Origin: Stentor roeselii
Lineage: Eukaryota > Ciliophora > Heterotrichea > Heterotrichida > Stentoridae
DNA length: 64,000 bases
Direction of reading: 5' to 3'
NCBI GenBank assembly: GCA_006503475.1
Contig: RSEH01000069.1
Location: forward strand, 110,948 to 174,947
Shown here: one piece after another, positions 8,229 through 54,902 of the stretch
Layout of the letters: every line of letters starts with the position of its first letter
Numbering within the stretch: position 1 is the first letter of the stretch
Translations under genes and position numbers: made by a program
Notes under the pieces: generated by a model
Told to the model about the DNA's origin: nothing
Seen by the model: the letters and a program-made list of their open reading frames with translations, nothing else
The model's database searches: none

Positions 8229-11200
8229 ATGATAAAAGTTTTGTATTTCCTTATAAAAATGATTTTTTTCTTATTTCTCCCGTATTTGGCACGTTCAGCT
8301 ATCCTTTCACAAGTATCAATTTCAATGGAAAACAGCACAATCACCTCAACAACAACTTATCAGGTTAACTTGAAACTAATAACTGCAATCTCAGAGACCG
8401 GGTATATTTTGATTACATTTCCTTCAATCTACACAGAATTAATCCAAGGATCATACAATTGCTTTTTTGATTCATCAAAGAAGTGCACTTGTGAACTAAA
8501 CAGCTTGACAATGTCAATAAGTTCATGTTTTCCGATGTTCAATGGGTCAACATTTAATTTAAAAATACAAAAAATTAAGAATCCTTCTATTGCAAAGACT
8601 TCTCCTCCATTCATAATCAACACCTATGTAAAAGCCGACACTCTAGGAGACACTCACTCATCATTAACCTTGAAATTCACTGAAGCAACTTTATCCAAAG
8701 CGAAAATTCTGAATTCAGGTAGAGTTGCCGAACTTTCTACTTGGACCTTGGATTTAACCATCAGTCTTAAAATTCCATCAGGTGGGTTCATCTTTTTAGA
8801 AACTCCTTCATGGACTGCTAATCTCGGTACAAGTAAATCGGGGTCTTCAAATGGAAAGTACTGCACAGGGTCGATTACTTGTAAAGAGATATCATCTCTA
8901 AACATTTTTTTACCTTGTGAATGCAGCACTTCAGGTGTGAATGTGACAGTCACTCTAGATTTGCAAGGTTCAGTCCAGCTGCAGATCTTTTCATTGACTA
9001 ACCCGCCAAGTGCAGCAAATGTTTCTGGGTTCGTCATTAAAACAGGACTTTCAGATGGTCTTTATGAAAAATCAGAAAATTTGGTTGTTCTTGTCACATC
9101 TCCTTCTTTACTTAAAGTGAATCGATTTAGCTTAAGTTCATTGGAAGTCTCAAAAAATAGTTCTTATTATTTCGAAATTTTCACTTTAAGTCCTATTCCT
9201 CAATTTAGTTTCATTTATTTGAACTTTTCGAGTGAATTTCAAGTTTCTTCTAGTTTGATCATATCTGAGGTATTTGGGATTTATAATTCTAAAGTTTCTG
9301 TTGTTAATGGGAAAGTGAGAATTGATAATGGGTTTAATTCGGAGTATCTGCTGGAAAATTCTACTATCGCTTTTTACTTGACTTTTATTAGGAATCCGGA
9401 GAGTAGTAAAGAATCTGAATCTATTTCGGTCTCTGTATTTGAGAGAAATTCTGCGTTGATGGCTTGGGCTTTGACTGGACTGACTGTTTCGGCTGTACCT
9501 GGGTCGTTAAAGGTGAATATTGAACCATCAAGTTGGAAGGTATCAGAAACAAGTATTTTCACATTTACCCTTACTCTAACCCATTCCATAAATCAAGGAG
9601 GAGCAATATCCCTTATCTTTCCCGATGAAATCATACCTTCAAATAGCGACGGCAAATGTCTCTATATTCCAGACAACTCAGCACTCGACAAGTCAGCAAA
9701 CTGCAAAGTTTCTCAAAACAAATACTTAATAGTGACTGATGGTTTTCCTTCAGGCAACAAGACCAACACGATTATTTTCCAGATTTCAAATGTTAATAAC
9801 TCGAAGTCTACATCAACCACATCAAATTTTACAATTTCCACATGTTCAACTAGCTCTTGTTTGTATTTTATTGATAGAGATAACAATTTTTCGATGAAGT
9901 TTTTGCCTAATTCTATTACTTCAGTTTTCATTGAACCTTCAGTAAAAACAACTGGAGTTTTAACTGGACTTGTTTTTATTGTTGAGGTTGTTTCAGTTAT
10001 TCCTCAAAAGTCTTATATTGAAGTTGAATTTCCTGAGAGTTTAAAGGTTGATATTAAGAAATGTTCTGGGATTAGTGGAGTTGGCTCAGATATCAGCTGT
10101 AAGTATGATGGATTGCTTAATATTACTGGTGGATTTGAAACTGGAGATTTTTCTGGGAAATTTAGTTTTTTGGTTACTTCTGTTACTAACCCTCCTTCAA
10201 CAAGACCAGTATCATTAATTAAATTCAGCATAAAATCTAAAGGAAACCTGATACTCTATAAAAACGACTGTTTTTTCCAAGCCTCAGAGCCTCACCAATT
10301 AAAATCCATATCAATCCAAAGCGTGAACTATACAGTAGGCAGTACTTCAGACATATATCTAAACCTCGAAGTCTTTAATCAAGTACCCGCATCATGGATC
10401 TTATTAAAAGAAAATACCGAGATTAAACTAAAAAATTCATTCTGTTCAGGATCAGGAGTAACAAAATGCTTAACAACCAACACTGGTTTAAACATAACAC
10501 TAGACGGACAACTCCGACCTTCAATATCATTAAACCTCTCAAACATCGAGATGCCAAAATCAACCAAGCCAACAACTTCTCTTGAAATTTTCACATACGA
10601 GTCAATTTACCAAGTCGACTATCAAAACACTTCGATATCTCTTCAAATGCTGACACCAAATTCACTACTTTCAGTTTCAATATCATCTTCAAATCCTTAT
10701 ATAAATGAAATTTCAGATTTTTCTTTCAACATTAAAAACAAGAACCCTATTCCTAGTTCAGGTTTTGTCTTGATTCTCTTTCCTGAAGAAATTTCATTTA
10801 TCGACCCAACATCTTGCTTGTTTTCACAAAAGACGACAACTTGTTCAAGATCTTCAGAAGGGGTAAAAATTAAAGTCTTAAATGACATTTTTTCAAGTTT
10901 TTTCTCAGTTTCAGTGAAAAATTTGAAAAATCCAAGTAAAGCTGGTTCAAGTTCTTCATTTAAAATCACGACATTGACTGAAGATTCTTATTTAATCGAT
11001 CAGCTGACAGGATTACTCACAAGTTTCACCTGTGCAAGTCTTTGTGAGACTTGCGAAAATACTGCATCAAACTGTACATCATGTAAAAACAGTTATTATT
11101 ATAATAACAGTTGCCATTCTTCATGTTTGGAAGGGTTTTACTCAAGTGGTTCCTTTGAATGTTTGAAATGCGACGATTTGTGTTTGACTTGTCAGTCTTT

Positions 11201-14200
11201 CGAAGCATGTACTTCTTGTTTGGGCTTCAAAGTACTGAATAACGGGAAGTGTCTTGACGTTTGTCCAGATGGATATTTTAACAACTCTTTTATTTGTGAA
11301 AAATGTGAGGATCTCTGTCTTAGATGTGCGGCAACTGGATGTCTTCAATGCACTTCTGGGTATTTCTTGTATCGGGGAACTTGTGTCACTCAGTGTCCTG
11401 GATTTATTAATGGAGATTATTGTCAAGACTGCTCAACTGGATGCAGGAAATGTGAAAATTTGAATAGTTGTTTAGATTGTATCACTGGGTACATCTTTTA
11501 TGAAAACTCTTGTGTTTCTAGCTGTCCTCAAGGGACTTTTGAAGTTTATAACTCTTCGAGTTTTGAATCGTTTTGTCAGGATTGTGAACCGAATTGCTTG
11601 ATTTGTTCAGGACAGAATAGTTGCTATGAGTGTTCAGGTTCTTTTGTGTTGCATGAAGGAAAATGCTCAAGCAACTGTCCCCCAACTTACTTCACCTCAA
11701 ACAAAACCTGCGAGATCTGCCCATCCAACTGTTTAACATGCGATTCTTCAAACTGTTCAGAATGCCTTCCAAATTTTTTCTTCTACAACGGTCAGTGTTT
11801 AAAGTCCTGCCCATCTCACATAACAGTATCAATATCGGGTAAATGTCAAGAATGTCTTGAAACCTGTCTAACCTGTTCAGTCTCTCAACATTCTTGCACC
11901 AGTTGTTTATCCCCTTTAAGTCTTTACGATTCGACCTGCTTATCATCATGTCCAAGTCCTTTAATTTCCTTCAACTCAAGATGCGTCGAATGTTCAGGTT
12001 GCCAGTCTTGTGAAGGGTCTCCTTCGAACTGCTCATCATGCGATTCCTCTTTATTTTTACATGAAGGTACCTGTCTTGAAGCCTGTCCATTAAACATATC
12101 AGTTCCAGTAGGAAGACTCTGTGAAAAGTGTTCAGAACCTTGTCTCTTTTGCCAGAATCAGTCAAACTTCTGCACTCAATGCAAAACTGGCTTTCAATAT
12201 CAAGGCAGTTGTCTTGAGACCTGCCCTTCTGGTTACTTTGAAGTTTCAGGTAAGTGTGAATCTCAATGCGCTTCTCAGTGCTCAGCAGAAAAACTAAATA
12301 ATCAAGTCTGTGATGATGAATGTAATGTCGCTGCCTGTAACTACGACAACTTTACATGCAGCATATCATCTCGGTATAGTTCTTCACTAGATGTTAAAAG
12401 TACTCCATTCCCTTCTACAATTGCATCAGTGTCAACGACAGGAGTTTCAGGAATCTCGAAGTACTTCGTCCCTGCGACTTCTTTTGTGTCAAGTTCAGTG
12501 AGTCTTATGTCGATCTCAGAGTCAGCCTCTTGGGTGAACCTTGCTTATCAGATAAGTCTTGTGGACTACACACATGGAAGAGAACTTTTTAATTCCAAAC
12601 AAAAAACTCGTCTTGCATTCGCTCTTGTCGTCAGTTTTCTCGTCATTCACTTCTTGATGAACCTGATCTTTGTACTTGTTTATTACTTCCAAATCCTCAA
12701 AAAAGATGAAAAGTTGAAAATCTGGAGCAAGTCTCATAAGTTTTCAAATGGAATCATCGTCACTTTGTCTTGCCTTGTTAGCTTCAAGTTCATGAAAATC
12801 GTTGTTTCGAATATGTTTGGGTTTAGAGTTTGTAAAGCGGACCTTGATAAAAAGTCGACTTTGTTGAAGCCGATGTTGATAATGAGTTATATTAGCATCA
12901 CTACTACTTCGGTTCCTATTCTTTGTATTCTTGTTTATATTCTCTCGATTTACTCTTCTGGAAACCCGGTATTTATTTTTGCACTTGATACATTGATTAC
13001 CACCATGATATGCACTTTGATGATGATTCCTGATATTGTTTACTTGCATAAAGAAATTAATGGCGAGAATGCATTGGCTGTCATGCCTGAATTTTTAACG
13101 ACTTTTGAACCCGATGGGAATAAAAACTTGAAAATTGAAACTTTTAATGTTTATGAGGTTCAAGATAATGATAGGACTTGTATGGATACTGGAAGGACAC
13201 TTATTAATCCTGTTATGGAAACTAGGGGGAATGAATTGGGTGATAGAGTTGAGAACTCTTGTCAGACTTCTGAGGAGATTTTTTTTGCAGCTTTTCGAGT
13301 GAATTTACCAGAAAAAACTGAAGATGTTTCTTCTGAAATTGAGAAAATTGAGGAAAATCTCCCTGAAACCAACAATTTTGATGAAAAACTCCCTGAAACC
13401 AAAAATTATGATGAAAAACTCCAAGAAACAAAAAATTACAATGAAAATTTTCTCAAAGTCACAAATCATGAAGAAAAACTCCTAGAAATCAACAATCATG
13501 AAGAAAAACTTCCAGAAACCAACAATCATGAAGAAAATCCGCCTGAGCTAAAAAATCAAGATGAAAACCATCCAGAAGTCACTCAAGAGTTGATAGCATT
13601 CGAAGAAGTTCTCTCTTCCCAAGTATCAAGACTTCGACCTGAAACCCTAAACCTAAGCTTCCAAAGAGTTTCATACGACTCAATCCTCCCAACATTAAAA
13701 GAAATTCGGATGAACGAAACCATAACTCTAAGTTTTGAAAGAGTCTCACATGATTCCGTAAGTCCAACAATAAAACAAGAAATCTTAACAATAGAATCAG
13801 TAAACAATTTCGAAATCCTTCCCTTTCGACCCACAATAATCGAAGACGAAAGTCAAGACCTCGAAGTTTTCGATAGTTCCAAAGAATTCATAGACGATGA
13901 AAACGAGCCTCAATTACTTGAAACAATTAACGAAGAAGACGAAATCGATCTTTCAAATGCCCAAGTCGATACTTTTGACATGGAATGCATCAAAGTCCCT
14001 CATCGAGCTTCAGGGCTAATTGTTTTAGTTAAGAAAAATTTTCTAAATGCAATTGGCGAGGACGGTGTCCAGGTAAATGACAAGAACTACTCAGTTGAAG
14101 AAATCGACCAAGGCGATGTGAGACTCGGAGTCTTAAAACGTTCGAATTCTGACTCATTCTTCAAAGCTCGAAGGCACTTCAGAGGTTCCACTATTGTTGA

Positions 14201-15248
14201 CGTCGAACTTCGAAGCGGCATTTGGCTTGTCGGTCGAACTGTGAGGTCAGAAAATGACTTCGCCTTTGATAATGCACGACTTTGCTTAGGGGGTCGCTCT
14301 GTACTTGTAGAACATGTCTTAAGTGGAATTCCTTATTTGGTCACGAAAAGTTTCGTTGGAGCTGTCAATGAAGATGGGGAAAAGTTGGAGTATGACCCTG
14401 AGAATTTAGTTGTTAATGAACAGGATCCTCATTTGGCTTGCTTTGAAGGGGTTGTCTTTAGAAGGTCTTTTGTTGGAGGACTGGTTTCTGCGGTTTTGGA
14501 TGAAGAGGACTTTGAACCTTTTGTGCCGGACTCGAGGACTAGTGATAAGACGGCGTTTTTTGAGAAAAGGTCGAGTCAGTCTGAGTTTTCGGCTCCTGCT
14601 GATAATTCGGAATTTATGTCGACGTTTTCTGATGGGTTCTTTGTTAATAAACCCTCAGCTTCGATTGAAATACAGACTGAACAGGACTTTTTGCAGAGTT
14701 CTAGCTTGTCGCTTAGCAAAATTGACTCTATTTCGGTAACGCCTTTGAAAATTAAAAAAATTCAGTCGGTTTTACAGGTGGATGACCCTGTAAGCTCCCA
14801 AAGAAAATTCAAAAGATTCAGCAAAATCAGCGAAGTAAACGACTCAATAACCTCAAAAAAATCCTCCTCAAAATCCAAAGGCACCCGTTTAAAAAAGCGT
14901 CCGAAAAAGCAATCAAAGACAAACCAAAGTAAATCCTCATCCAAGCAAAACACCCCTCGTCACACCTTACGAAAGTCTCAAAAATCTCCATCAAGTAATT
15001 CAAACGACAGCCGTTCATCACTCGAAGCTATTTACCTTCAACGTTTACGAACTCCAAAAGACCGAGGTGAGAAGTTTCCAAAGTCTTCAAGTAAAAGTTT
15101 CCACGAAGATTCAAATTTTTCATTATCAATCCAGCAGTCGCTGAACCAACTCCATTCTCAAGCAGCTCCTTTGAAGCCACTTCAACCCTGGGGAACCTCT
15201 GATCATTTCCACCCAGACGACAGTGAACTTCCTTTAAAATCTAAATAA
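8229..15248 (+). CDS. Giant surface protein: repeated ectodomain, furin-like Cys repeats, LNR, membrane helices, long cytosolic tail
   Basis: I take the ATG at 8229 as start (2339 residues) because it opens a strong signal peptide (about 1-28). Residues 30-930 contain about seven degenerate repeats of 130-140 residues; each ends in a signature like N-P-x-S-x(4)-S-x-F-x-I-x-T (near nt 8566, 8992, 9385, 9783, 10178, 10540 and 10915). Residues 935-1350 are furin-like CxxC repeats, the type common in ciliate surface proteins. They end in a Notch-type LNR (CDDECNVAACNYDNFTC, about 1361-1377). Four hydrophobic helices lie at about 1460-1490, 1505-1530, 1546-1577 and 1579-1606. The cytosolic tail has an acidic 10-residue repeat, an unrecognised globular part (about 1920-2100) and a Lys/Ser-rich end. 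Adhesion or sensing at the cortex is a guess. The stop directly abuts the next ATG. Confidence 0.85.
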   Translation: MIKVLYFLIKMIFFLFLPYLARSAILSQVSISMENSTITSTTTYQVNLKLITAISETGYILITFPSIYTELIQGSYNCFFDSSKKCTCELNSLTMSISSCFPMFNGSTFNLKIQKIKNPSIAKTSPPFIINTYVKADTLGDTHSSLTLKFTEATLSKAKILNSGRVAELSTWTLDLTISLKIPSGGFIFLETPSWTANLGTSKSGSSNGKYCTGSITCKEISSLNIFLPCECSTSGVNVTVTLDLQGSVQLQIFSLTNPPSAANVSGFVIKTGLSDGLYEKSENLVVLVTSPSLLKVNRFSLSSLEVSKNSSYYFEIFTLSPIPQFSFIYLNFSSEFQVSSSLIISEVFGIYNSKVSVVNGKVRIDNGFNSEYLLENSTIAFYLTFIRNPESSKESESISVSVFERNSALMAWALTGLTVSAVPGSLKVNIEPSSWKVSETSIFTFTLTLTHSINQGGAISLIFPDEIIPSNSDGKCLYIPDNSALDKSANCKVSQNKYLIVTDGFPSGNKTNTIIFQISNVNNSKSTSTTSNFTISTCSTSSCLYFIDRDNNFSMKFLPNSITSVFIEPSVKTTGVLTGLVFIVEVVSVIPQKSYIEVEFPESLKVDIKKCSGISGVGSDISCKYDGLLNITGGFETGDFSGKFSFLVTSVTNPPSTRPVSLIKFSIKSKGNLILYKNDCFFQASEPHQLKSISIQSVNYTVGSTSDIYLNLEVFNQVPASWILLKENTEIKLKNSFCSGSGVTKCLTTNTGLNITLDGQLRPSISLNLSNIEMPKSTKPTTSLEIFTYESIYQVDYQNTSISLQMLTPNSLLSVSISSSNPYINEISDFSFNIKNKNPIPSSGFVLILFPEEISFIDPTSCLFSQKTTTCSRSSEGVKIKVLNDIFSSFFSVSVKNLKNPSKAGSSSSFKITTLTEDSYLIDQLTGLLTSFTCASLCETCENTASNCTSCKNSYYYNNSCHSSCLEGFYSSGSFECLKCDDLCLTCQSFEACTSCLGFKVLNNGKCLDVCPDGYFNNSFICEKCEDLCLRCAATGCLQCTSGYFLYRGTCVTQCPGFINGDYCQDCSTGCRKCENLNSCLDCITGYIFYENSCVSSCPQGTFEVYNSSSFESFCQDCEPNCLICSGQNSCYECSGSFVLHEGKCSSNCPPTYFTSNKTCEICPSNCLTCDSSNCSECLPNFFFYNGQCLKSCPSHITVSISGKCQECLETCLTCSVSQHSCTSCLSPLSLYDSTCLSSCPSPLISFNSRCVECSGCQSCEGSPSNCSSCDSSLFLHEGTCLEACPLNISVPVGRLCEKCSEPCLFCQNQSNFCTQCKTGFQYQGSCLETCPSGYFEVSGKCESQCASQCSAEKLNNQVCDDECNVAACNYDNFTCSISSRYSSSLDVKSTPFPSTIASVSTTGVSGISKYFVPATSFVSSSVSLMSISESASWVNLAYQISLVDYTHGRELFNSKQKTRLAFALVVSFLVIHFLMNLIFVLVYYFQILKKDEKLKIWSKSHKFSNGIIVTLSCLVSFKFMKIVVSNMFGFRVCKADLDKKSTLLKPMLIMSYISITTTSVPILCILVYILSIYSSGNPVFIFALDTLITTMICTLMMIPDIVYLHKEINGENALAVMPEFLTTFEPDGNKNLKIETFNVYEVQDNDRTCMDTGRTLINPVMETRGNELGDRVENSCQTSEEIFFAAFRVNLPEKTEDVSSEIEKIEENLPETNNFDEKLPETKNYDEKLQETKNYNENFLKVTNHEEKLLEINNHEEKLPETNNHEENPPELKNQDENHPEVTQELIAFEEVLSSQVSRLRPETLNLSFQRVSYDSILPTLKEIRMNETITLSFERVSHDSVSPTIKQEILTIESVNNFEILPFRPTIIEDESQDLEVFDSSKEFIDDENEPQLLETINEEDEIDLSNAQVDTFDMECIKVPHRASGLIVLVKKNFLNAIGEDGVQVNDKNYSVEEIDQGDVRLGVLKRSNSDSFFKARRHFRGSTIVDVELRSGIWLVGRTVRSENDFAFDNARLCLGGRSVLVEHVLSGIPYLVTKSFVGAVNEDGEKLEYDPENLVVNEQDPHLACFEGVVFRRSFVGGLVSAVLDEEDFEPFVPDSRTSDKTAFFEKRSSQSEFSAPADNSEFMSTFSDGFFVNKPSASIEIQTEQDFLQSSSLSLSKIDSISVTPLKIKKIQSVLQVDDPVSSQRKFKRFSKISEVNDSITSKKSSSKSKGTRLKKRPKKQSKTNQSKSSSKQNTPRHTLRKSQKSPSSNSNDSRSSLEAIYLQRLRTPKDRGEKFPKSSSKSFHEDSNFSLSIQQSLNQLHSQAAPLKPLQPWGTSDHFHPDDSELPLKSK
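13353..13586 (+). repeat. In-frame 30-bp tandem repeat in the cytosolic tail
   Basis: About eight degenerate copies of a 30-bp unit encode ten residues each, approximately E-E-K-L-P-E-T-N-N-H/Y. Units differ by substitutions but hold the frame, so the repeat is old or under selection. It codes an acidic, probably disordered linker just after the membrane helices. Confidence 0.85.
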
Positions 15249-16997: not shown

Positions 16998-17237
16998 TAA
17001 ATTTTCAGGGTTTTTTATAAGATTTTGTAAAGTTTTAAGGAATAGTGGACTTTTGATATGATTAAAGGGAATCAATGAAGACTTTCAAAAATTAAGATAA
17101 TCTCAAGTCTTATTTCTAAAAATCCTGAAATTCAATCAAATCCATCATTTTTTTGAATACCACTCACAATGATCACTAAATTCTCAAAAGATCCTTTAAC
17201 CTCAACATAAAAACCAAAGAAATTTCTAAAAAGACAT

Positions 17238-19535: not shown

Positions 19536-19590
19536 TTATGGGATTCTGGAAATGGTGAGAAGGACTTGCAAATCATTCCAACTAACTAAT

Positions 19591-21273: not shown

Positions 21274-21306
21274 TTTTAGCCCCTTAACTCGTAAAAAATT
21301 ATTAAT

Positions 21307-22170: not shown

Positions 22171-22370
22171 TTATAACCCTTCACATCACTTGTATCATAT
22201 TATTATCAAATACCAAAACCCCAAAATCCCAAAACCCTTCCCAAAACCCTAAAATTCAACCCTAACCAAACCCTCCAATCCAACCACAACATAAACTCCA
22301 AAAAACCATCTCATCCATCACATTAATCACCACCCTACTCCATCAACTAAAAAATAATCTATACCAAAAT

Positions 22371-23042: not shown

Positions 23043-23079
23043 ATAGGAATTATGGATGAGATATCAAAACCGTAAATTA

Positions 23080-24880: not shown

Positions 24881-27800
24881 ATGGTATTTCTCTATACATT
24901 ATTTATTGCTTCACTATCTTATAAACTAACCTATGTCCCTGAATCTGTATCACCCCCTTCAAAAACAACTCAATCATCCGCTGTTTTCAATTCAAAAACC
25001 AATGAAATAATAACAATAGGAGGTCTATCTTCAGAGCTCTCTCCAAAAATTTACATCTTCAACCTCTTCTCAAAGACCTTCAAAAAAATCGACGCTCAAA
25101 GCCACACAGAGCCTCCATACTTATCAGGTCATCGTTTATTCCTATCCGATTCATTAAAAATCTACACTTTCGGTTCATCCTCTGAAATATATTCCTTCAA
25201 CTTAAAAACATCATCTTGGTCAATTGAGTCTTTTTCAGGAGATTCTTTAAAAAGTCGGCGATTTTTCGGATTTGATTCATTTTCCTTTAAAAATTCAAAG
25301 TTTATCGGAATATTCGGAGGCCAGTCAGACGAGGGGTACTTATCTGACTTCATCATGTAAGAGTAAGTCAGGGTGGACATAGAAAACTTGAAGATTATTG
25401 AACCAGAGACTTTTGGTGACAAGCCTTCTGCGATGATTGGTTGTTCGCTTTCATATCACGAAGAAAGTCTTTACCTTTACGGATACAGTCCATTTGAAGA
25501 TAAAGAAAACAGTTTATATAGACTTGACCTTATCTCCATGACCTGGTCAGTCATTCTAACGACAGGTCAAAAGCCTCTTCCCTGTGCTCATCATTATTCA
25601 AAAGTAATAAAAAACAGCTTATTCGTTGTATTCGGATTTCATTATGAGTCACTTTCTCAATATTCCTCGATTTACAAGCTTGACCTGATAACTTTTAATT
25701 GGACTTGCCTTTCTTTTGAATCAAATTTTTCTATGTTTGAATCAGCTGAGGTCTTCATAGGGTCTACTCTTTACCTGTTTTACGGAAAGTCAGGGGAAAA
25801 TACTCTTAATTCAGTTATTTCAATAGACCTTGATAAACCTATTCTCACTGCTAATATCTTGGCTAATGATTTCGATTCACCTGTCTCGAGAATGCATCAT
25901 TGTTCTGTTGTTATTGATAGATATATGTATACTTTTGCTGGAAGTCATTTGGTTGCTTTTGATCATGAAGAATTGCTAGGTGATCTTTGGAGATTTGATT
26001 TTGATCTGAAGGTTTGGAACATCGTTCATACATCTGGACATTCACCGGAAAATAGAAAAAATTTCGCATGTTGTAAGATGAATGGAGATGTCTTAGCTGT
26101 CTTTGGAGGAATTGGGTTGAATGGATTTTTACATGATTTTTATTATTTTCATGAAAGTTTTAAAGTTTGGCATCAAACTTCTGAAAATAAAATTGAACCT
26201 AGAGCTGACTCTTGTATGACTTATTCGAAACATTTTTATTTTATTATTGGAGGACGGGATGGACAAAAAGGGTTTAATGATATTTGGACATATAATGTTG
26301 AAACATGTACTTTTGACCTGTTCCTACCAAAAATGAAAAATCCCCTGAAAGATCTTCACGGAAGCATTTGCTGGGTAGAAACATTCTCAAATTCATCATC
26401 AATCTTAATCCAAGGCGGTAGTAACTTCAAAAAAGAGCCAAATCCCTTCACATTTGAAATCCACCTCGACATAAACATGAAATTTCTAAAAATGCAAATA
26501 AACAACTCAGAAACCCCTGACAAATCTCCATTAATCCTTTCAACCTACTCATCCTCAACTCGAATCCACGACAGTCTACTAGTCCTCGGCGGTCTTCTAT
26601 CAGACTCAATGATGATTTTCCCTCCAAGAATAAAAAACTTAAAAACCAACAACTTTTCCAATCTAAGTCCTTCAAATTCGCTGAACTTATTTGGTCACTC
26701 TGCAGTCCACTTCGAGAAATCTTTATTCATCTTCGGGGGTCAACAATCAAGTGGTTCTTTCAAGTCTCTTCTGAAAATGAACAGCTGTTTAATAAAAATC
26801 GACTTCGAAGAACTTGACCTTTCCTGCAGTGAAGGTCATGTTGGGAAGAACTGTGAAGCTTGTCCAGCAGGTACTTTTGAAACAGGAGGTTTTTGTGAAA
26901 AGTGCCCGAAAGGCACTTTTAGTGAAGTCGTTGCTGCTTCTGATATTCAACAGTGCCTGCCGTGTCCTTTTGGAAGCTATGCTAGTGAAGAAGGGTCTTC
27001 GAAGTGCCTCGAGTGCTCTTTTGCTTCCGTTTGTTTTATTGGGTCAGATAGTCAGAAGGAGGTCCTTTGGCTTCCTGGAAATTCTTCGAAACAACCTGGA
27101 GATTATCAGGACTCGAAAAAGATTATTTCGAAGATGAATGAAATTTTGAGTTATGCTTTGGTTTCTGTTTGTTTATTTTGTGCTTTTGTTGTTTATTTTA
27201 GTGGAAAAGTTTGGAGATTTATGCAGGGATTTGATATTTTTATTAGTCAGCATAGTTATTTGATTGGGGTGCCTGTTATTTTGAGGAAAACTAGAATTGG
27301 AGGGTTTTTTACTATTTTGTTTGTTTTGTTTGCTTTTTTTACTTTAACTGAAGCTGTTTTGTTGTATGTTTTTGATAATGTTAGGGAAATCAAAGAAATG
27401 GTACCTGCTGCTATTTTAGACTGTGAAGTATTTTCAGATAAAATAGAACTCTGGGCAGGTTTTATGTTTTACGGAGGTTCCTGCACAGTAAACTCAGAAT
27501 GTATAAAAGAAATTTCCATAAAAGAATCCGGTTTCCACTACAAAACCAAAACAATCTCCTGCATTTCAACCGAATCTCACTGTTTCATAAAACTACTTTA
27601 CTCTAAAGTATCCCTTCTCAAGAAAACCTCTTCAATTAATATCACCTTAAAAGAGCCTTTAAGTTTTGCAAGTGCTTTAACCCCAAACATAAGCAGCAGT
27701 TCATCAATTCCATCTGAAAACAGTTCAATAAGTTATTCTCTAAAGCCTACAGACAACAACACAATTTTACGTGGCAGTAAACCAACCCTGTTCTCATTCG

Positions 27801-37267: not shown

Positions 37268-37973
37268 ATTAATTCTAGGAAAGTTTGGAGTTTTTATTTG
37301 GGTTGGATGTGGAGTGGATATCGAGGTGGTTTTCATATTGGGAGGATGGTAGGGTTAGTTTATAGGGGAAAATTTAGAGGATTGGATAGAAGAGGAGAAG
37401 TTATTCTTTTTATTAAAAATGTTTAGTAATAATTTGTCTTTTTTTTTGGTTCTAATTATTTGAGTGAATTATTATTTATTTGGGAAGTTATTTCGATTTA
37501 GTATATTTAGAGAGGAATCAGAAAAATTTGAGGCATGGACTATTAAATGATTAGATAGTAGTTAGATACAATTAAGTGATTCTTAATATTGTTATTTTTG
37601 AGTTTTTGTCTATCTGGCACATAAATTAACCTCTTATACTAAACGAATCTGATAGAAAATGTTGAGGGTAAAAGAAGAAAAGTTTAAGAGTAAACTAATA
37701 AGAAGAGTTTAATGATGTTCTTAAATATTCACATGCAAATATTAAGTTTAAATACAAAATTTACAACATCTAAGATAAAAAAATCCTTCTATTTCAAAAA
37801 TTTCAATCAATCCAACAACAAAAATAATGCAGGCTGAATACCTTCTCAAAGAATATTCAATAAAATTATCCAACATTAAAAAATTATTTAAACCTTTAAT
37901 TTCAATCAAGTTTCACTCTTTGTTTAACCTTTTCATCATTCATCAAAGCATCCAACTTAGCCTCCAACAAAAA
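37268..37973. other. Convergent intergenic region
   Basis: No gene I can support. About 37268-37450 is strikingly G/T-rich (3' flank of the F-box gene), the middle is AT-rich, and about 37740-37973 is G-poor (3' flank of the minus-strand gene). A 61-codon frame at 37827 has no supporting features. Confidence 0.5.
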
Positions 37974-40325: not shown

Positions 40326-41567
40326 ATGGACTGCTTCGTCTTGAACCCTTCAACAGGTCCTTTCACTGAGAGTCAAAACTTGTTGAAACTCTTGCAAACC
40401 CTCGAACAAGACCTGGAACAGCCTTACATTGAAAGAAGACTCAAAAGTGTCACTCAAAAATCAAGTCTTTTAGATGAGTTGCAAGACACAGTCCATGAAC
40501 TGAACCAAAGAGAAAAAGACCTCTTGGCTTGCATTGGAATCGCGAAAATGCTGGTTTCGAACAATGGGACTTTACTGCAGGAAAATAATGAACTTAAACT
40601 TGATGTTATTCGAATTAAAAGTCATTCACAATTGCTTAGTGATGAAATCGCCAGGCTCAAGGAAGAACTTGAAATTGCTGAAGAGAAATATGTTCAGGTT
40701 AATCATACTTTGGTTAATACTGAGACTGAGTTTATTAAGTTGTGTGCTGAAGTTAAAATTAAAGCTGAGACTGGGGAGAAACCTAGTAGGAAAGTTAGTG
40801 TTGATCGATATGAGGCTGAGTTGTTTGAGATTTCTACTAAGTTTATGGCGGAAAAAGACTTTTTACTAGCAGCTAAGCTAGAAGCAGAAAAAAAAGTAAA
40901 ACACCTCGACTTAAAACACCAAGAATCTCAAAAAACTCTATCCGAACTCGAAGACAAGAACCAAATCCTTCTCTCAAAACTATCAAAACTAAAAGAAAAG
41001 TTCGAAACCCTTCAAGAAAAATTCAACCTCGAGCTACAATCCCGTGAAGAATCCGAAATTTTATACGACCAATTATTCGACAAGCACAAAAAGCTGTTAA
41101 TTTTAAGCGAAAAGCAATCAGAAGAGCTAGAAATCCTAAAAAATCCTTCTGAATCTTCAGCCTTTTTAACCTCAGCCGAAGGCGGAAGTCTTCAAAGAGA
41201 ACTGCAAGACCTTGAAGAAGACTTCGAAGCAGAAGGTTTTGAAAGTCCTCCAAAGCGACGTTTAAGTTCAAGTTTAAGAAATAGTTTCAAAATGATGGCA
41301 AGGACGATAGGAATCTTCAAACAAGACCCAGTCGCAGTCACCACAAAGAAAAAACAAAGAAAAGCGCCTTGTGAAGAGTACTTCGTCCTCGCCACTCAAG
41401 CCATCAAGCTGAACTCGCCTTACATGGACAGTATCTGCACGATAAACGCGAAAAAATTATATGAAAACGCGCTGCAAAATGAGGTACCTTTCCACAAATG
41501 GCACCTTTGGATTGAAAATCAGCTGAATTCGGCTTATTTATCTGGAGTTTATGCAAAAGCTAGGTAA
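40326..41567 (+). CDS. Coiled-coil protein with a possible CC1 box (HAP1/BICD-like dynein adaptor)
   Basis: The 413-residue protein is mostly coiled coil (about 45-280), ending in a globular tail with a conserved-looking segment (YFVLATQAIKLNSPYMDSI, about 349-367, and WHLWIENQL). Residues 65-80 (KDLLACIGIAKMLVSN) resemble the CC1 box of HAP1, TRAK and BICD adaptors, in which an A-A-x-x-G core binds the dynein light intermediate chain; here the core is A-C-I-G. This suggests a dynein/dynactin cargo adaptor, which is inference from one short motif. An alternative is an unrelated cytoskeletal coiled coil. It starts 20 bp after the preceding stop (context gataataATG) and is convergent with the VWA gene, 36 bp away. 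Confidence 0.7.
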   Translation: MDCFVLNPSTGPFTESQNLLKLLQTLEQDLEQPYIERRLKSVTQKSSLLDELQDTVHELNQREKDLLACIGIAKMLVSNNGTLLQENNELKLDVIRIKSHSQLLSDEIARLKEELEIAEEKYVQVNHTLVNTETEFIKLCAEVKIKAETGEKPSRKVSVDRYEAELFEISTKFMAEKDFLLAAKLEAEKKVKHLDLKHQESQKTLSELEDKNQILLSKLSKLKEKFETLQEKFNLELQSREESEILYDQLFDKHKKLLILSEKQSEELEILKNPSESSAFLTSAEGGSLQRELQDLEEDFEAEGFESPPKRRLSSSLRNSFKMMARTIGIFKQDPVAVTTKKKQRKAPCEEYFVLATQAIKLNSPYMDSICTINAKKLYENALQNEVPFHKWHLWIENQLNSAYLSGVYAKAR

Positions 41568-41603: not shown

Positions 41604-44600
41604 TTATTCTTCAGATTTTTCAGCACTTTTCAGGTACTGGTCAAGATGTTTCCAGGGATGTTTGCTTGAATTTAGTTTCTTGAGAAGGTCTTTCGTTTTG
41701 AAGTCCCAGTCGATTTTTTCGTTTTTTTCAATGCGAGCGATTTTGAGTCTTTCCACGAAATTTTTAACTTTATTTAAAATTCTGATTTCAGAGTGTCCAT
41801 TGATGCACCATTCGATTAAAACTTTCTGATTTTCTTTCAAGTTATTTTCCTTTAAGATTTCAGATATATCAATATGATAACTCGTGTAATCTTTAAGTTC
41901 TTCCAAATGTTTTTCAAGTTTTTTCACTTTTCTCTTTTTATTCTTCCTGACCTCATCATCATATTCTTGAGTCCATCCATGAGGACCTGGAAATTTCAAG
42001 TCTTTTGTATGACCATGTCGATTAGGAGCAGTCGTGTTTCGAAGACATTCGACTGTCTTTTTAAAGAGACTTTTGATGTTTTCACTGAGTTCTTCAGAGA
42101 ACTGGAACTTCTGAAGTACCTGTCTTAATGACTTGCGCAAGTCCCCTGGAGGCGAGTTGGTCCAGTCGCCGATGACCAGAGCGAGTCCAAGAGTCCTGAG
42201 CTTGTCTTCCTCGTTGATCTGATTCAAAACTTCCAGCACATCACTGCGGCAGAGTTTCAAAGAAAAGCCATCAATTGAGTACTCTAAACTTTTAAGACTT
42301 TCGTTGCAGGATTCGAAAGAACCTGCAGGTAAATTTAAAACTTTTTCAGTTAAAAAGGCCAGACCTGCTGCTTTTCGTTTCAAGTTCCACTGGTTGACTT
42401 GTTCTCTGAATTCTTCTTTTAAGATCTCCACGCAACGGTCATGAAGAGCGGAGATGTTCAAAGGTTCAAGAGAAATTCTTAGCCATTCTTTTGAGCCTTC
42501 GTCGAGTTTGTAACGAGCTGTTCGCTTTTTCACGAGTAAGGACTCGATAAACACGTCGAATAACAACTCGTCTGAGCAGAGTGATTGAAAAGAAAGGACC
42601 TTTGCGTCGTTAAAGGCTTCTTCGCAGTTGTTGGTTTTTAAATTGCACACGAAAAGGCCGATTGCTGTTTTAAAGACGTTTAAAGCTCCAGTGATGACTG
42701 AGTTGCTTGAGACGTGAGATTTTACCTTTAGAATAAAACTGTCTTCAAGTCTTTTTCCTCGCTTTAGAACTTCTTCTAAGTAATGTTGGCCGCTCAGAGG
42801 GTCAAAATCTGTGATGCTCGTGGATTCTATGATTAGAGAAGCAAGTTGTTTTTCAGTTGGTAAACGTAATTCTGGTCCGTCTTTTTTCAACTCGTATGAA
42901 ACTACCTCTGCTGAGTACTCTTCGAATAAAAGACGTAGGACTTGCTGGGATTTTTCGGTTTCTGGAGAGTGTTTGCGGAAAAATGTTAATATTCCTGCGA
43001 AGACCTTTGATATACTGTCTACTGGATTCAATGCTAGACCTTTTTTCGCTGCTCTGTAAAGTTGTAGGCCTGGTTTGATATCTGAAACTTCAAATGAATG
43101 AGCAAGACTTCTCAACAAGTCCCATTCACCTTGATTAAAATTCGGGCCTTTTTCACGAATTCGAATCAAATGCCATAAAGTTGCTGATTGAAGGCCGATG
43201 CTCATCGAAGGAAAGATTTTGTAGCCTCCAGAGACCAAGTGACTTTGAATCAGTCCTTGCAGGGTTGGGAAGAAACCGAGTAGTTTGTAGAATTCTGATA
43301 ATAAACTTGAAGACGGAGGAGCGAATATCAAGGCTGAGTTGAATTTTTCAGAGGATGCTAACGATATGTAGGTGTTTTCACCTTCAGGACGTGAAGATAT
43401 TGCTGCTGATGCTGTCGATATCCCTGAATAGTCGATTTTTCCGAGAGAGGCTGACCAGGCATCGCCGAAGTCTTCTTTGCCTGTTGCATCTGTGGTAAAC
43501 TTAACGTCGATGAAACGGATGAGAATCATTTGAAGTACCAAGTCCATCCAGTTACTAACATCAAGTTCCGAGTAAGGTTTCGGGTTCAATTCAATAATTT
43601 TCGCAACAAGTTTATCAATAATAACCAAAGGATTCACAGGCAGATCCTCCTGATGAGTAAAAGTTTTCCCTTCACCTTTTTCCTTAACACTTTTGATATA
43701 CTTTTTGAAATTTTCAAGTTTTTTGACATCCCATTCAATATTCCTTTCCTTAGCAGCAAGTACCTGAAGAGTAGCCATCAAATTATTGACATCAACTTCA
43801 ACCTGGTCAAAGTTCCCATTTCCTAAAATAAACTGAAATCCTCTAAGCAAGACCCTAACAGAAGCCGCGACCTGATCAGCAGAGACTCCTCTGCACCGAG
43901 TAGCAGCTTTTTTTCCAGCGAATCTATCAATAGCAGTTCTAAAAGGAGCAGCGATTCTTTCAGCCAGTTGTTCAGAGTCTCCAATTTCCTTATAATCTTT
44001 ATGAACTTTATCATTTTTCCCCTGATCTTCTTCGACCATCTGGAAATCGTCAGGGTCAATGTCAAGAATTCCGAAGCCTCCCGACAAGTCTTCAGTGTTG
44101 ATGGTTCTCAGAAGGTTCAAGTCTCTAGAAACTGAAAGTCTTTGAAAGGTGTCCAACAAGACGCCCAGTCCTCCTGCCAAGGCTTCACTCGAGGCTTGTT
44201 TGGGGCACAGGACAAGTCCTTCAGTCATGACTGCAGCTTGATGGAACCAGACAGATCTTCGTGAGTCGCCGTATAAGACAGGGACGAAAGTGACGTTTAA
44301 AGAGTCGATCACCTGACAAAGAACGATGAAAACATCAGTATCGTCAAATCCTGCATTTTCCAACCATTTTCGCTCATCAAGTGTTTCAGCGCCTTCTCCG
44401 AAACACTTGCAATGAGGAGGGGCATCAGTGATGATAAAGCAAAGAAGGTTGTCGTTGATGTCGAAACTGTCGACTAATGAAGCGATTCCTGCTGTCACGT
44501 TTTCAGGACCGTCTCCTCCGCCTGCGTTGATTGTTGGGTTGTCTGGAGGATGGCAGAGGGTGATGTCTTTGGTGTACTTCACAAGGCCTTCTGATTTTAA

Positions 44601-48360: not shown

Positions 48361-51300
48361 CTACAAATTTCGTGATACCTCTAAAAATATCTCCTTAAGA
48401 CTCTCCTTCACATCCGGGTCCTTGGCAGTGATAAGTTCACAAAGTTGCGGGAAAAGTTCAAGCAAATGTGCTTTTTTCCCAGGTTTCTTCAAAACTCCTT
48501 CAGAAACTTCATGTTTTTTAATAGAATCCAAGACTTCAAACATTTCAAGTAACTTGATCCTTGGAAGTGGCATCATTCCAGAAAGTTTTTCCTCTTTACA
48601 GAATTTTCCAATGATTTCTCGACATCTGTTGACCATGACATGACTGGCGACATCTGCGCATTTTGACTGAAGAGACGAAAGTTTTAACAGGCAAGAGAAA
48701 CAAGTGTTGTTCAGGGCTTTTTGAAGGGTGAGCTCCTGGGTGTGAACAATTTTATAAAAACTTTCACATCCTGAGTCGATGACGCCGATGAATGCCTTCA
48801 AAATATCTTGATCTTCCACGATTTGTTCATATAAAAGTTCAGTCAAAGCACAGGCAAGTCGCATGTCAAGGTCTTCAGCAAGTTTGCAAAGTAACTCCAA
48901 ATTCGATTTTCCTAATTTTCCAATAATTTTTTCATTCGGGCTGAAAATCGCTGAAAGTGTTGAAAGAATCCTGGAAAAGTACCCAGGCCTGAAAATCACA
49001 GGCAAAACTCGTAAAAAGAACTCACCTGCCTGCACCCAAATAGGACTGAAACCTTTCGCTATGTTTATCGTTGCTAAAAACGTGTCGCTGTTGAACCTTC
49101 CGAAGAGAATCGTTTCGATGCTGTCTAAAAGTTCATGACTGAAATTTTCACATTTTTCGAAATGGTTTTCAAAGAGTTTTTCTAGAATTTCTAAAGATTT
49201 TCGGCAAAATATGTCGGAGTGGGAATCGTCTGGAGTAATTTTTAGGTGATTTTTAAGGAAATTTGAGAAAGGATAGAGATTTTTCTGGTTTTTTATAAGA
49301 ATTTCTAGCAATTTTTCGCTGAAGTCCCAGATTTCTCTTTGTTCTGGCAGGAGTTTTCCAGAAGTCAATGCAGATTCAGCTGAGGTTGACTTGAGCAAAG
49401 ATGCGATGATAGAAAAAAGACAGTTTAAAGCAGGTTCTTCAAAAGGGTAGTCAAAAGAAGTAGAGTAAACCAAAGTAAGCACTTCTAAAACAATTCCAAT
49501 GATTTTATATTGAATATGAAGACTTTTCGTTTTAAGTCTTTCGTCAATACTTTCAAAGAGTTCCCAAGACTTCTGCCATTTCGAGTAAAACAAAGCTGAG
49601 ACTTGACTACACATAAGAAGTTCTCGAAGAGTCTTTAAAACCGAGGTGATAATCGATAAAGTTCCAGATTCAATTCCTTGTTTAAGCCCAAGAATCATGA
49701 CTTCCCAATTTTTTCCAACTTCAGGTTCATCAAGCACATCTTGTTCAAGTTTTTGCAGATTTTGAAGATAAGTAATAAAAATCCTTCCAAGGTTCTGAGT
49801 GAAGATATTATAAGTCTCTTCCCATTGTTTTTCATTGCTTTCTTGAATCAACTGGTTAGAGCGGTTCAAGTCGACTTTCAAAGCAATTTTCGAGTAATTC
49901 AGAAAAATCCTGCTAAAAACTCCTAAAACGACATCTTGCATGACTCGCTGCCAATGAGCTGATGTGAAGAGTCGCCCATGGGTAGAAAGAGTGATATGCA
50001 AAGAATGAAGTGCAGAATGTCTTACTTCAACTCTAGGGTCTTCTCCTAGAACTTTCAGTTCCTCAAGTATAATCCACCAGAGTTCTGCCTTGTCACTTTC
50101 GCGCTTTCCCAAGAAATCCGATACATTCCAATACATCCCAACAGCGCCGATTGCCTGAGTCGCATCTTCTGAATGTGCATATTTCGACACACAGGAGATA
50201 AGTCTTTCCATTGACGTCACCAAACTTTCACATTGCAAGAAGTCGCTGATTATCAGCTGAAGACACTTGAAGCCTTCTTTTCCTCCACTGGGCCCTGAGA
50301 CGTTTATCTTGCTTAAAATGAATAAAAGCATTGACCAGCCAGTTTCATCGAGTTGGCCTCCAGAAGACTGAAGAATACTATGCAAAATGACATAAACGTA
50401 CTCTTGGGTGTCGATGTAAGCTGACCCGTGCAAGTCATGAAGAACTAAAAGTAAAGTCCTCTGCCAAGTCTTCCACTTAACGACATTTACACAAGGAGGA
50501 TTTTCCACAAATCGTTTAAAAGCGCTGATCATTATTCTAAAAATTGAATTCGAGCCTAAACTTCTAATCTCTGGGTATTTGTAGTTACTGATGCAGTCCA
50601 AGTAAGCAATCAGTGAGTCCCAGTAAAGTTCAACGCGATGCAAGTTATTCTGAGCAACGATGATCATTTTTTCAAGTCCGAAGAGTTTCCCGCTGTTTAA
50701 TTTTTTGTCGTTAGTTGAAAGAGTTTCCATGAATTCTAAAGTGAGTTGTCCAAGGGCGGACATGAGGTCACTTATTGTACAGTCAGGCCAGATGTGTGTG
50801 TTTTTAAATAAGGAGTCCATTGCAGAAGTCAAAATTCCGACATCTGAAGCCAAGTCCTGCACGTCTTGTTTAAATAAGTTGTTTAGTAAGTAGTCGAGTT
50901 TGTAAAGAGTGTCTAGAACTTTGTGCCAGGCTTTTGAGTCAAGTACTGATCCTAAACAATGAGTTATGTTGAATAAAGTTTTGCATATTTGAAGGTTCTT
51001 TTGGCTTAGGGTGCCGGTTGGACCTGGCACGCAAAACTGGCATAAGGAAGCTAGCAGTGCTTCTCGAGCCATTGGGAGGTTCAAACTACCGGATAGGTTT
51101 ACTAGGGTTTGGTATGAGTTTAACATTGTCTGGAGAGTTGTTTCGTTTGCGCAGTTTGATACTACTATGCTTAGGATTGGAAGAAGCGGCTTCCAAATCG
51201 TTGAAACCAGGTCAAAAGCCAGAGAGTCTTGAGTCGAGGACTGCGGCTCCCCTAATTTAATTCCCGCTTCTTGAGATATAAGACTAATGCTATCAACACA

Positions 51301-53291: not shown

Positions 53292-54902
53292 CTAGCCTAA
53301 GTTAATCGTGTCACTTTCACCTTCGAAGACCAGCAACGTGTGAATTAACGGCAGGTACTCTTTCGCAGTTTCTGCATTCATCAGGTTTTTGAGTTTCATG
53401 TAAATATCTTCGTATTCCCACTTTTCTCGCCCTTGTCCAATCCACTGTTTTAAAAGGTTATAAGCTTCTAAAAAGGTGTCGATTCCGAGCTTTCTCTCTA
53501 AAAACATACGGAGAAGCTCGCATCGGCTTTGAGTTGATCGGTCGTTTATTTGGAAGGAATTTTCTTCTTCGACTTGTGCTTCTGATGTTTTTGTCTCTTC
53601 TATTGCGTGGCTTTTTATCACGTCTTCTTTGTAGATGATTTCTTCGTTTGAGGTCATTGAAAGGTCGAAGGTGTCGCTTAGGATTTCGTCGTCTTTTACT
53701 TCAACATCAGCTGCTGCTTGAAGCTCTTCGACCAGGCGAGACTCTTCCTTGCTTGTTCCGATCCACTGAACTAGTTCGGAGTTGTTTTTTGTTTTTGAAC
53801 GGGATTTTATGTCTTCTCGCATTTTTAAACGGTCTTCTTCACGCTTTCTTGCCTTTTCTTCGCGGATTTTCTCTTTTTCTTCAGCTGTTAGCACTTTTTC
53901 TTTGGGTTTCTTTTTAGAGGATTTTTTTCCGCTGGATTTTAAAGAGTCTAAAGGCTTTGATTTGGGTTTTGATTCGGTTTTTTTTTCTTCGGGTTTTCTT
54001 TCTTCGCGTTTTGCTCCTTTGGGTCTTTCGTCGTTTAAGTCGACGAATTTTTCATTGTGCAGGATAGTGTGAGAAAACTCTCTCAAATTGATCGATTCAG
54101 TCAGCAAATTCTTAATTCTCCTATTAATAAAAGGCACTTTTAAAATTCCAGCAATACTAGGCCGTTTATTCGGGTCAATACAGAGCATCTGAGCGACAAG
54201 TGTTTTCAAATCCCTAGAATAATGAGGAGGAAGAGGTGGGTACGCCCCCCTTACAATCTTGAGAGCAAGAAAATGAAAACTAGAAGCATCAAAAGGCGGT
54301 TTAAGTGTACAAAGTTCATAAAGTAAAACCCCCAGTGACCAGACATCACTTTTAAAGTTGTAAGGTTTATTATCAACAATTTCCGGACTCAAGTAATAAG
54401 GCGTCCCAACAACAGTCTTCGCCTTGTCAATAGTGCTTGACAAGACTCGAGCAATTCCAAAGTCTCCAAGTTTAACAATATCATCTTTAGTCAAAAAAAC
54501 ATTCTGAGCTTTAATGTCACGATGCAAAATTTTCCTATCATGGACATGCTTAAGTGCGAGACAAAGCTGCACAAAGATGTCGATAATGAAAACTTCTTGA
54601 AAATATTTTCCTTTCTGGTTTTTTATTCGGTCTGCCAGGTCTCCGCCGTCTGCGTAGTCCATCACAATGTTTAACTTCCCAGTGTTGGTTGCGTAGATGT
54701 CGCGGAAGCGGATGATGTTCGGGTGGTCGAAAGCTGACATTATTTTCGCTTCGTGGTAGGATTCTCGCTTTTGAGAATCGTTCATGTGCGAGATGTCGAT
54801 TTGCTTGACTACCACTTTAGAGTTGTCTTGAGGGTCGATGCAGAGGTAACACTTGCCGAAGGAACCTGACCCGAGAAGCTGGATCTCTTGAAGTTCTTCC
54901 AT
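53292..54902 (-). CDS. NIMA-related (NEK) protein kinase
   Basis: The kinase domain covers about 4-262 of 536 residues: G11-S-G-S-F-G, Lys33, Glu51, H127-R-D129 with IKAQNVFL (NEK hallmark), D147-F-G149, and GTPYYLSPE. All catalytic residues are present. A Lys/Glu-rich coiled coil follows (about 290-375), then an acidic stretch and a helical C-terminal region (about 460-530). NEKs control cilia length, basal bodies and mitosis, and are greatly expanded in ciliates. The C-terminal coil probably dimerises or targets the kinase. Which subfamily it belongs to cannot be fixed without a tree, although the layout is NEK1/NEK4-like. Confidence 0.93.
   Translation of the reverse strand: MEELQEIQLLGSGSFGKCYLCIDPQDNSKVVVKQIDISHMNDSQKRESYHEAKIMSAFDHPNIIRFRDIYATNTGKLNIVMDYADGGDLADRIKNQKGKYFQEVFIIDIFVQLCLALKHVHDRKILHRDIKAQNVFLTKDDIVKLGDFGIARVLSSTIDKAKTVVGTPYYLSPEIVDNKPYNFKSDVWSLGVLLYELCTLKPPFDASSFHFLALKIVRGAYPPLPPHYSRDLKTLVAQMLCIDPNKRPSIAGILKVPFINRRIKNLLTESINLREFSHTILHNEKFVDLNDERPKGAKREERKPEEKKTESKPKSKPLDSLKSSGKKSSKKKPKEKVLTAEEKEKIREEKARKREEDRLKMREDIKSRSKTKNNSELVQWIGTSKEESRLVEELQAAADVEVKDDEILSDTFDLSMTSNEEIIYKEDVIKSHAIEETKTSEAQVEEENSFQINDRSTQSRCELLRMFLERKLGIDTFLEAYNLLKQWIGQGREKWEYEDIYMKLKNLMNAETAKEYLPLIHTLLVFEGESDTINLG

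What the first reader, a model, noticed from the sequence alone, without database searches (positions are those of the whole stretch)
8229..54902. Sawtooth keto/amino skew inside long genes with abrupt resets
Read by eye, coding strands drift from C/A-rich to G/T-rich and then reset sharply: near 9530, 10200, 11680, 13350 and 14783 in the surface-protein gene, 26330 and 27400 in the Kelch gene, and 40860. In minus genes they reset near 43525, 43082, 51250 and 54070 in the opposite direction. Resets are about 400-1700 bp apart and do not match domain borders. Synonymous codon choice seems to carry it. I know no standard cause; nucleosome phasing, internal initiation, or repair/recombination tracts are candidates.
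Basis: seen in the sequence. Interest (0 to 1): 0.7.

Follow-up and report, generated by a model that had tools for sequence, protein, structure and literature searches.

The report
Sawtooth strand bias around fixed points
In the sampled parts of this protist genome the two DNA strands differ in base make-up in a repeating sawtooth that fades about 600 bases either side of sharp points, which looks like the long-term scar of DNA breaks made at the same places generation after generation.

Summary
In + strand coordinates the keto/amino (GT minus AC) balance rises slowly and drops sharply, in + genes, in - genes and between genes. Eleven of the twelve quoted resets lie within 75 bp of a called drop. 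Protein-preserving synonymous shuffles give z up to about 20. Among sampled ORFs outside the window 54 of 85 exceed z=3 (purine/pyrimidine: 1 of 85); an E. coli control has 0 of 17. Drops are sharper than rises (p<5e-5, 71 blocks), and time-reversible surrogates of the window do not reproduce this.

The bias is mainly C/T and A/G exchange on one strand at nearly constant GC. It fades to zero about 600 bp from a drop, whatever the distance to the next. Simulation favours fixed-length tracts running both ways from a point over replication-fork polarity. The GT-rich strand is the one whose 3' end faces the drop, the sign I read from published human meiotic-break data.

Best reading: a base-composition scar of recurrent germline double-strand breaks with 5'-to-3' resection. 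Pattern, symmetry and tract length are shown; breaks, meiosis and the mutation-or-conversion step are inferred.

The parts
8191..8251 (.). drop at about 8221 (GT-rich left, AC-rich right), at the start of the surface-protein gene
   Evidence: 8216; 8221
8229..15248 (+). large surface-protein gene with furin-like cysteine-rich repeats, carrying five internal drops
   Evidence: z=19.9; Pfam Furin-like_2
9491..9551 (.). internal drop at about 9521
10168..10228 (.). internal drop at about 10198, one of the strongest
   Evidence: z=7.6
11626..11686 (.). internal drop at about 11656
13328..13388 (.). internal drop at about 13358, where (by eye) a short tandem-repeat coding stretch begins
14755..14815 (.). 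internal drop at about 14785
22176..22236 (.). intergenic drop at about 22206 with a G-free right flank of about 70 bp
25433..27934 (+). Kelch-repeat gene with two internal drops
   Evidence: z=18.3; Pfam Kelch families
26286..26346 (.). internal drop at about 26316
27355..27415 (.). internal drop at about 27385
   Evidence: z=7.6
37480..37647. intergenic drop (37617, 37510)
40822..40882 (.). internal drop at about 40852 in gene 40326-41567
   Evidence: z=7.6; 40850
43521..43581 (.). internal drop at about 43551 in the minus-strand gene 41604-44801 (weak VWA match); same + strand direction as in plus genes
51148..51208 (.). internal drop at about 51178 in the minus-strand Mon2-like gene 48361-52347
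   Evidence: z=8.0
54039..54099 (.). internal drop at about 54069 in the minus-strand kinase gene 53292-54902
   Evidence: z=7.2
55063..55123. intergenic drop at about 55093 with a C-poor left flank; not in the stricter list
   Evidence: z=6.3

Best explanation
Each drop is a place where the germline DNA is opened again and again, most likely by a programmed (meiotic or post-meiotic) double-strand break. Shown: (a) left of the point the + strand, right of it the - strand, is enriched in G and T and depleted of C and A; (b) the exchange is mainly C/T and A/G at nearly constant G+C; (c) it is roughly level for 200-300 bp and gone by about 600 bp, whatever the distance to the next point; (d) the points are narrow (simulations allow a spread of 0 to about 50 bp), number one per 1.5 kb (window) to one per 3.4 kb (pooled, strict), and lie in genes and more densely between them; (e) the pattern recurs in the sampled contigs. 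Inferred: the strand affected is the 3'-ended tail left single-stranded by 5'-to-3' resection. That strand changes C to T and A to G, either because single-stranded DNA and its gap-filling are mutagenic, or because heteroduplex mismatches are resolved in a strand-directional way (A.C corrected on the invading strand, G.T left alone). Over long times neutral sites approach equilibrium, and neighbouring tract pairs overlap into a sawtooth. The sites must therefore have stayed fixed for a long time.
For: Direction-specific asymmetry: 71 blocks, sign-flip p<5e-5 at 60-240 bp, 47 of 71 blocks negative at 150 bp; window surrogates 0 of 4000. Held-out sites confirm a sharp drop and gradual rise. Distance test: the decay is the same for spacings from 1000-1400 to 2700-6000 bp. 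On held-out sites, beside one simulated genome per model, real data look like the fixed-tract model and not the linear one. Both transition types move together with G+C at 0.27-0.35 in noncoding DNA, and all 16 neighbour classes tested shift the same way. Hinch et al. [quoted passage not shown] with their Fig. 1 legend (single strand left of the break on the forward strand, right on the reverse) I take this to be the sign seen here. Rattray et al. 2015 (PMC4287439, abstract): yeast meiosis raises mutation 6-21 fold at a reporter, dependent on Spo11. The genome holds one Spo11/TopoVI-A-type ORF and two Rad51-family ORFs. Low-GC3 ORFs mostly lack the signal (3 of 14 with z>3, against 68 of 96), as expected if recombination drives both; this link is correlational.
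Against: No break map exists for this organism and its identity is unknown. No promoter preference is seen (divergent gaps with a drop 4 of 18, tandem 19 of 86, convergent 8 of 26), unlike yeast hotspots (recalled). No G+C peak at intragenic drops, which ordinary GC-biased conversion would give. In Hinch et al. some mutation types, A>G among them, peak 700-800 bp from the centre and the central 100 bp each side shows no asymmetry; here the bias is full from about 75 bp. Rattray et al. saw no difference in mutation spectrum or distribution between mitosis and meiosis (abstract). The size is extreme (noncoding C from 27% to 6%), so the asymmetric process must dominate substitution; that is hard for mutation alone unless sex or breaks are frequent or a conversion drive acts. 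Drop positions in six Kelch paralogs are only weakly in phase (p=0.03), so long persistence of sites is not demonstrated.
Confidence: 0.5

Rival explanations
1. Transcription-phase bias, as proposed for fungi: coding strands become C-rich after the start and G-rich before the end of transcription units.
For: Averaged over genes the coding strand is AC-rich near the 5' end (about -0.15) and GT-rich near the 3' end (about +0.13), as McLean and Tirosh report for GC skew (PMC3315797, parts 1-2 of 4 read). Such a rule gives a drop at every gene border, whatever the orientation.
Against: 66 of 105 strict drops lie inside genes, more than 60 bp from an end, five of them in one ORF. Direction does not depend on gene strand. 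In fungi A and T change little along genes; here A/T moves with G/C.
Confidence: 0.15
2. Sites of germline-limited insertions (internal eliminated sequences or transposons) if the assembly is a ciliate somatic genome, with repeated cutting or repair there.
For: Narrow points, one per 1.5-3.4 kb, no clear motif, denser between genes. Near noncoding DNA TA is in excess at drops (319 seen, 231.3 expected, z 5.8), which I put down to the AT-rich spacer context but cannot exclude as signal. Beta-tubulin is nearest, by sequence, to a chain recalled as Tetrahymena.
Against: No significant TA excess at the 64 intragenic drops (325 seen, 301.7 expected, z 1.3); no PiggyBac-type transposase matched, although that model rang in no control either; one 3-kb query found no second copy. 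Somatic excision is not inherited, so a germline step would still be needed. Ciliate identity is unproven.
Confidence: 0.12
3. Very dense, fixed replication origins with yeast-like skew (leading strand rich in A and C), giving a downward jump at each origin.
For: Sign agrees with S. cerevisiae, K. lactis and C. albicans (PMC3459929, passages read).
Against: Fork polarity predicts a linear change over the whole interval. Intervals of 2-8 kb are near zero beyond about 600 bp, whereas the simulated fork model is not. Spacing is far below known origin spacing (recalled).
Confidence: 0.07
4. Selection on codons, translation pace, RNA structure or protein repeats.
For: Seen first in synonymous codons; A/C-ending against T/G-ending codons resemble Watson-Crick against wobble decoding.
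Against: Noncoding DNA shows equal or larger swings, direction ignores gene strand, and there is no clear hairpin excess at drops (mean z -0.32 against -0.18 and -0.26 at offsets of 200 bp, standard error about 0.11).
Confidence: 0.03
5. Chance or assembly artefact.
For: Raw composition wanders in any genome.
Against: Shuffles, surrogates, held-out sites, the E. coli control (largest z 1.52 of 17 ORFs) and presence across sampled contigs. Long open frames stay intact through drops.
Confidence: 0.01

Closest known systems
Strand-asymmetric mutation flanks of human meiotic hotspots (Hinch et al. 2023, PMC7615360, passages)
   Same: C and A mutate on the strand that is single after resection, G and T on its complement; effect in resection-scale flanks
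   Different: There it is seen in rare de novo mutations at PRDM9 hotspots, partly with off-centre peaks; here it is a standing base composition in most sampled ORFs (71 of 110), tracts of about 0.6 kb, no motif found
GC-skew gradients along genes of unicellular fungi (McLean and Tirosh 2011, PMC3315797, parts 1-2 of 4)
   Same: C-rich 5' and G-rich 3' coding strand on average, extending into noncoding flanks
   Different: Theirs is tied to gene ends and hardly involves A and T; here resets also fall inside genes, five in one, and A/T takes part
Replication skew sawtooth (human skew jumps; yeast origins, PMC3459929, passages)
   Same: Keto/amino sawtooth with a sharp jump of one sign; sign equal to yeast
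   Different: Fixed decay of about 600 bp instead of a ramp spanning the inter-origin interval; kilobase spacing
Deamination gradients of mitochondrial heavy strands (recalled)
   Same: C to T and A to G on the strand left single, graded along the DNA
   Different: Nuclear, many two-sided points
Subtelomeric composition bias of hypotrich nanochromosomes (Prescott and Dizick 2000, not held; its citation and a summary sentence seen in PMC3558436)
   Same: Local breach of strand parity in ciliates (recalled)
   Different: About 50 bp at chromosome ends, with a 10 bp period

Membership tests
Compositional footprint of resected double-strand breaks | GT excess on the strand whose 3' end faces the point, on both sides | tested here: met
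Compositional footprint of resected double-strand breaks | finite tract length independent of spacing to the next site | tested here: met
Compositional footprint of resected double-strand breaks | break machinery present | tested here: met
   profile matches only: TP6A_N, Rad51; function untested
Compositional footprint of resected double-strand breaks | G+C peak at the site from GC-biased conversion | tested here: not met
   G+C flat at 0.36-0.38 around the 64 intragenic drops and lower, not higher, at the 39 near noncoding DNA; a common companion, not essential
Compositional footprint of resected double-strand breaks | coincidence with mapped breaks | not testable with these tools
   no break map for this organism
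Compositional footprint of resected double-strand breaks | fresh mutations with the same asymmetry | not testable with these tools
   no polymorphism data
Replication-origin skew | skew varies linearly across the whole interval between jumps | tested here: not met
Fungal-type gene-end GC skew | C-rich 5' and G-rich 3' coding strand | tested here: met
   (for the GT/AC measure, not GC skew alone)
Fungal-type gene-end GC skew | change limited to gene ends, A/T nearly flat | tested here: not met
Insertion-site scar (TA-bounded eliminated sequences) | TA at each junction | tested here: inconclusive
   intragenic 325 against 301.7 expected, z 1.3; near noncoding 319 against 231.3, z 5.8, confounded by AT-rich spacers

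The most novel reading that the evidence does not exclude
The raw sequence of this genome is a readable map of ten thousand or more long-lived germline break sites (13,000 to 29,000 if the sampled densities held throughout), each placed to within about 50 bp, with tract lengths and strand. Base composition at neutral sites is set mainly by distance and side from the nearest site. The driver may be a strand-directional biased gene conversion that favours G/T on the invading 3' strand at constant GC, a drive that I did not meet in the papers found here.
Probability: 0.35. Interest if true: 0.88.

Novelty: new variant of a known kind. Interest (0 to 1): 0.72.

Why it matters
If right, break sites and tract lengths of a germline process could be read from one assembly, without experiments, in organisms where meiosis is hard to study. 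It would show that a local, strand-directional repair or conversion process can outweigh other influences on neutral base composition. It also offers one explanation for gene-end skews in fungi that were put down to transcription. It warns that codon-usage and selection analyses in such genomes are confounded by position.

Tried and rejected
Considered and set aside: codon selection and translation (noncoding signal); fork polarity; transcription phase alone (66 of 105 strict drops inside genes); hairpins at drops (103 sites); a sequence motif: words holding TA rose near drops, part of it due to aligning on the K-to-M boundary; the TA excess is not significant at 64 intragenic sites but strong at 39 sites near noncoding DNA, where spacer context confounds it; bp-exact against spread points: simulations allow 0 to about 50 bp, so this does not separate models; a motif-specific deaminase: all 16 neighbour classes shift. 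A second copy with inserts was sought with one 3-kb query and only the window itself matched. Two RPL3 copies were compared by eye (a first attempt paired the wrong frame): their profiles are shallow, perhaps through codon selection; not tested separately. Results against: 47 rises passed the z threshold that 42 drops passed (ramps also ring the filter); asymmetry is weaker at 360 bp and absent at 600 bp; the raw-sequence contig-start sample gave only 54 drops to 45 rises; at 240 bp the E. coli control also had skewness -0.21, untested for significance; in real gaps of 3-8 kb (11 intervals) the last bins are noisy, up to +0.17. Dropped rows: L031 (copy of a window gene) from the pooled set; ORFs under 250 codons; gaps over 1500 bp from the gap counts; 7 of 122 intervals outside the classes; 2 of 105 strict drops near locus ends. 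The statement that no paper with this pattern was met rests on the searches and 68 of one open-licence library, whose listings were partly capped (15 of 328, 10 of 17 and 10 of 36 shown).
Full report
WHAT WAS CHECKED. The window is the right-hand 64 kb of a 174,947-bp contig in an unnamed 44.4-Mb, 522-contig assembly. The genes read are compact, mostly single open frames, and use the standard code. Beta-tubulin is closest in the PDB to 6u0h and then 7miz (best 60 of 72 matches shown), recalled as Tetrahymena and Toxoplasma, so the organism is probably an alveolate, perhaps a ciliate; this was not proved.

IS IT REAL. For each of 17 chosen genes, third codon positions were scored G/T=+1, A/C=-1, and the variance of 30-codon means was compared with shuffles that keep the protein and codon usage. 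The raw + strand profile in 150-bp bins shows the sawtooth directly, crossing genes of both strands and spacers. A matched filter finds drops at 11 of the 12 quoted coordinates. Time-reversible surrogates of the window never gave the asymmetry (0 of 4000 at each of three scales).

HOW WIDE. The pooled set is 354,202 bp: the window, 20 contig starts (one from the window's own contig), 4 other 10-kb stretches (one adjoining the window, three inside other contigs), 4 tubulin loci, 2 RPL3 loci and 5 Kelch paralog loci. It is a convenience sample of 44.4 Mb. Among ORFs of at least 250 codons, keto/amino z exceeds 3 in 17 of 25 in the window and 54 of 85 elsewhere; purine/pyrimidine in 1 of 25 and 1 of 85; G+C in 6 of 25 and 18 of 85. 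In an E. coli control region 0 of 17 exceed 3, the largest being 1.52. ORFs with GC3 below 0.27 mostly lack the effect (3 of 14, against 68 of 96 above).

DIRECTION. The third moment of right-minus-left differences is negative over 71 five-kb blocks at 60 to 240-bp windows (p<5e-5; 46 to 51 of 71 blocks negative), weaker at 360 bp (p=0.005) and absent at 600 bp. It has the same sign in gene interiors of + strand (45 ORFs) and - strand (50 ORFs). With drops called on half the sites and measured on the other half (98 drops, 83 rises), the mean goes from +0.29 at -120..-60 to -0.31 at +60..+120, whereas rises take about 500 bp. Codon positions 1 and 2 follow at very roughly a fifth of the size.

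WHICH BASES. In the window, sorted by local phase with a site and its near neighbours left out, C among two-fold C/T codons goes from 0.70 to 0.18, and G among two-fold A/G codons from 0.22 to 0.52. In noncoding DNA, G goes from 0.019 to 0.293, C from 0.271 to 0.058, and G+C stays between 0.27 and 0.35. Purines fall from 0.50 to 0.40 at four-fold sites and rise from 0.45 to 0.56 in noncoding DNA, so transitions dominate but are not the whole change. All 16 neighbour classes shift in the same direction.

TRACTS, NOT FORKS. If drops were origins, skew should change linearly across the whole gap to the next drop. Instead the folded skew reaches about zero at 600-700 bp for gaps of 1000-1400, 1400-1900, 1900-2700 and 2700-6000 bp alike; gaps of 500-1000 bp are too short to tell (115 of 122 intervals in the classes). 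Repeated on held-out sites beside one simulated genome per model, real data resemble the fixed-tract simulation; the linear simulation keeps skew beyond 1 kb in gaps of 3-8 kb, where the real data (11 intervals) are near zero with noisy last bins. A level of about 200 bp falling to zero by 600 bp, with a point spread of 0-50 bp, reproduces the mean profile.

WHERE. At the strict threshold there are 105 drops, median spacing 1540 bp. Density is 0.28 per kb in gene interiors (66 drops) and 0.40, 0.51 and 0.84 per kb in divergent, tandem and convergent gaps (4 of 18, 19 of 86 and 8 of 26 gaps with a drop). So there is no sign of promoter preference. At 64 intragenic drops TA is not in significant excess (325 against 301.7) and G+C is flat; at 39 drops near noncoding DNA TA is in excess (319 against 231.3) and G+C lower, as spacers are. 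No clear hairpin excess. Averaged over genes the sawtooth produces an AC-rich 5' end and a GT-rich 3' end.

PARALOGS. The search with the window's Kelch protein listed 55 matches. Six loci were read, the window's own gene included: z is 5.4 to 19.5. Their profiles are only weakly in phase (p=0.03 for six, p=0.05 for the three closest), and part of this may come from shared gene ends.

MECHANISM. A two-sided, fixed-length effect in which the 3'-facing strand loses C and A is what 5'-to-3' resection of a break would leave. Hinch et al. 2023 (passages) report C>N and A>N on the forward and G>N and T>N on the reverse strand in the flanks of human meiotic hotspots; with their legend on which strand is single, I read this as the same sign. 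Differences: their A>G peaks 700-800 bp out, and the central 100 bp each side is symmetric. Rattray et al. 2015 (abstract) report Spo11-dependent meiotic mutation in yeast, but no difference in spectrum between mitosis and meiosis. Akematsu et al. 2017 (abstract and one results section) report meiotic and post-meiotic Spo11-dependent breaks in Tetrahymena germline nuclei. This genome has one TP6A_N (Spo11-type) ORF and two Rad51-family ORFs. Two routes from break to base composition are open: mutation of single strands or of gap filling, or strand-directional resolution of A.C and G.T mismatches in heteroduplex. The second is my inference; it would keep G+C constant and act strongly in large populations, which eases the problem that the mutation route must dominate all other mutation.

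LIMITS. No polymorphism, break map, germline sequence or orthologue was available. Species and life cycle are unknown. Long persistence of sites is required by the size of the effect but not shown. That I met no report of such a pattern rests on the searches listed under Tried and rejected in one open-licence library.

Noticed in passing
window 1-3000 and 56000-62000: Low-G+C stretches (about 23-30%); two of the three long genes there (79-2445 and 59091-61202) show no synonymous sawtooth and 57325-58833 only a weak one (z 2.4). No Pfam match for the three. Possibly a distinct compartment.
   Followed up: partly
window 22212-22281 and 55030-55099: Spacer stretches of about 70 bp that are free of G (first) or hold a single C (second) on the + strand, next to drops.
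   Followed up: no
window 25433-27934 and elsewhere in the genome: The Kelch gene belongs to a large family: 55 matches at E<=1e-20 in the assembly, several in clusters on one contig.
   Followed up: partly
window 13350-13570: By eye, an in-frame repeat coding for an acidic, Asn-rich unit begins at a drop in the surface-protein gene.
   Followed up: no
window 15248/15249: The stop codon of the surface-protein gene is directly followed by the ATG of the next gene on the same strand.
   Followed up: no
L029 and L030: Two RPL3 copies, 374 of 390 residues identical but only 86% identical in DNA, with a G-poor upstream stretch in L029.
   Followed up: no
L003: A tubulin gene that reads like gamma-tubulin (my recognition) shows one of the strongest sawtooths of the sample (z 20.6).
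   Followed up: no
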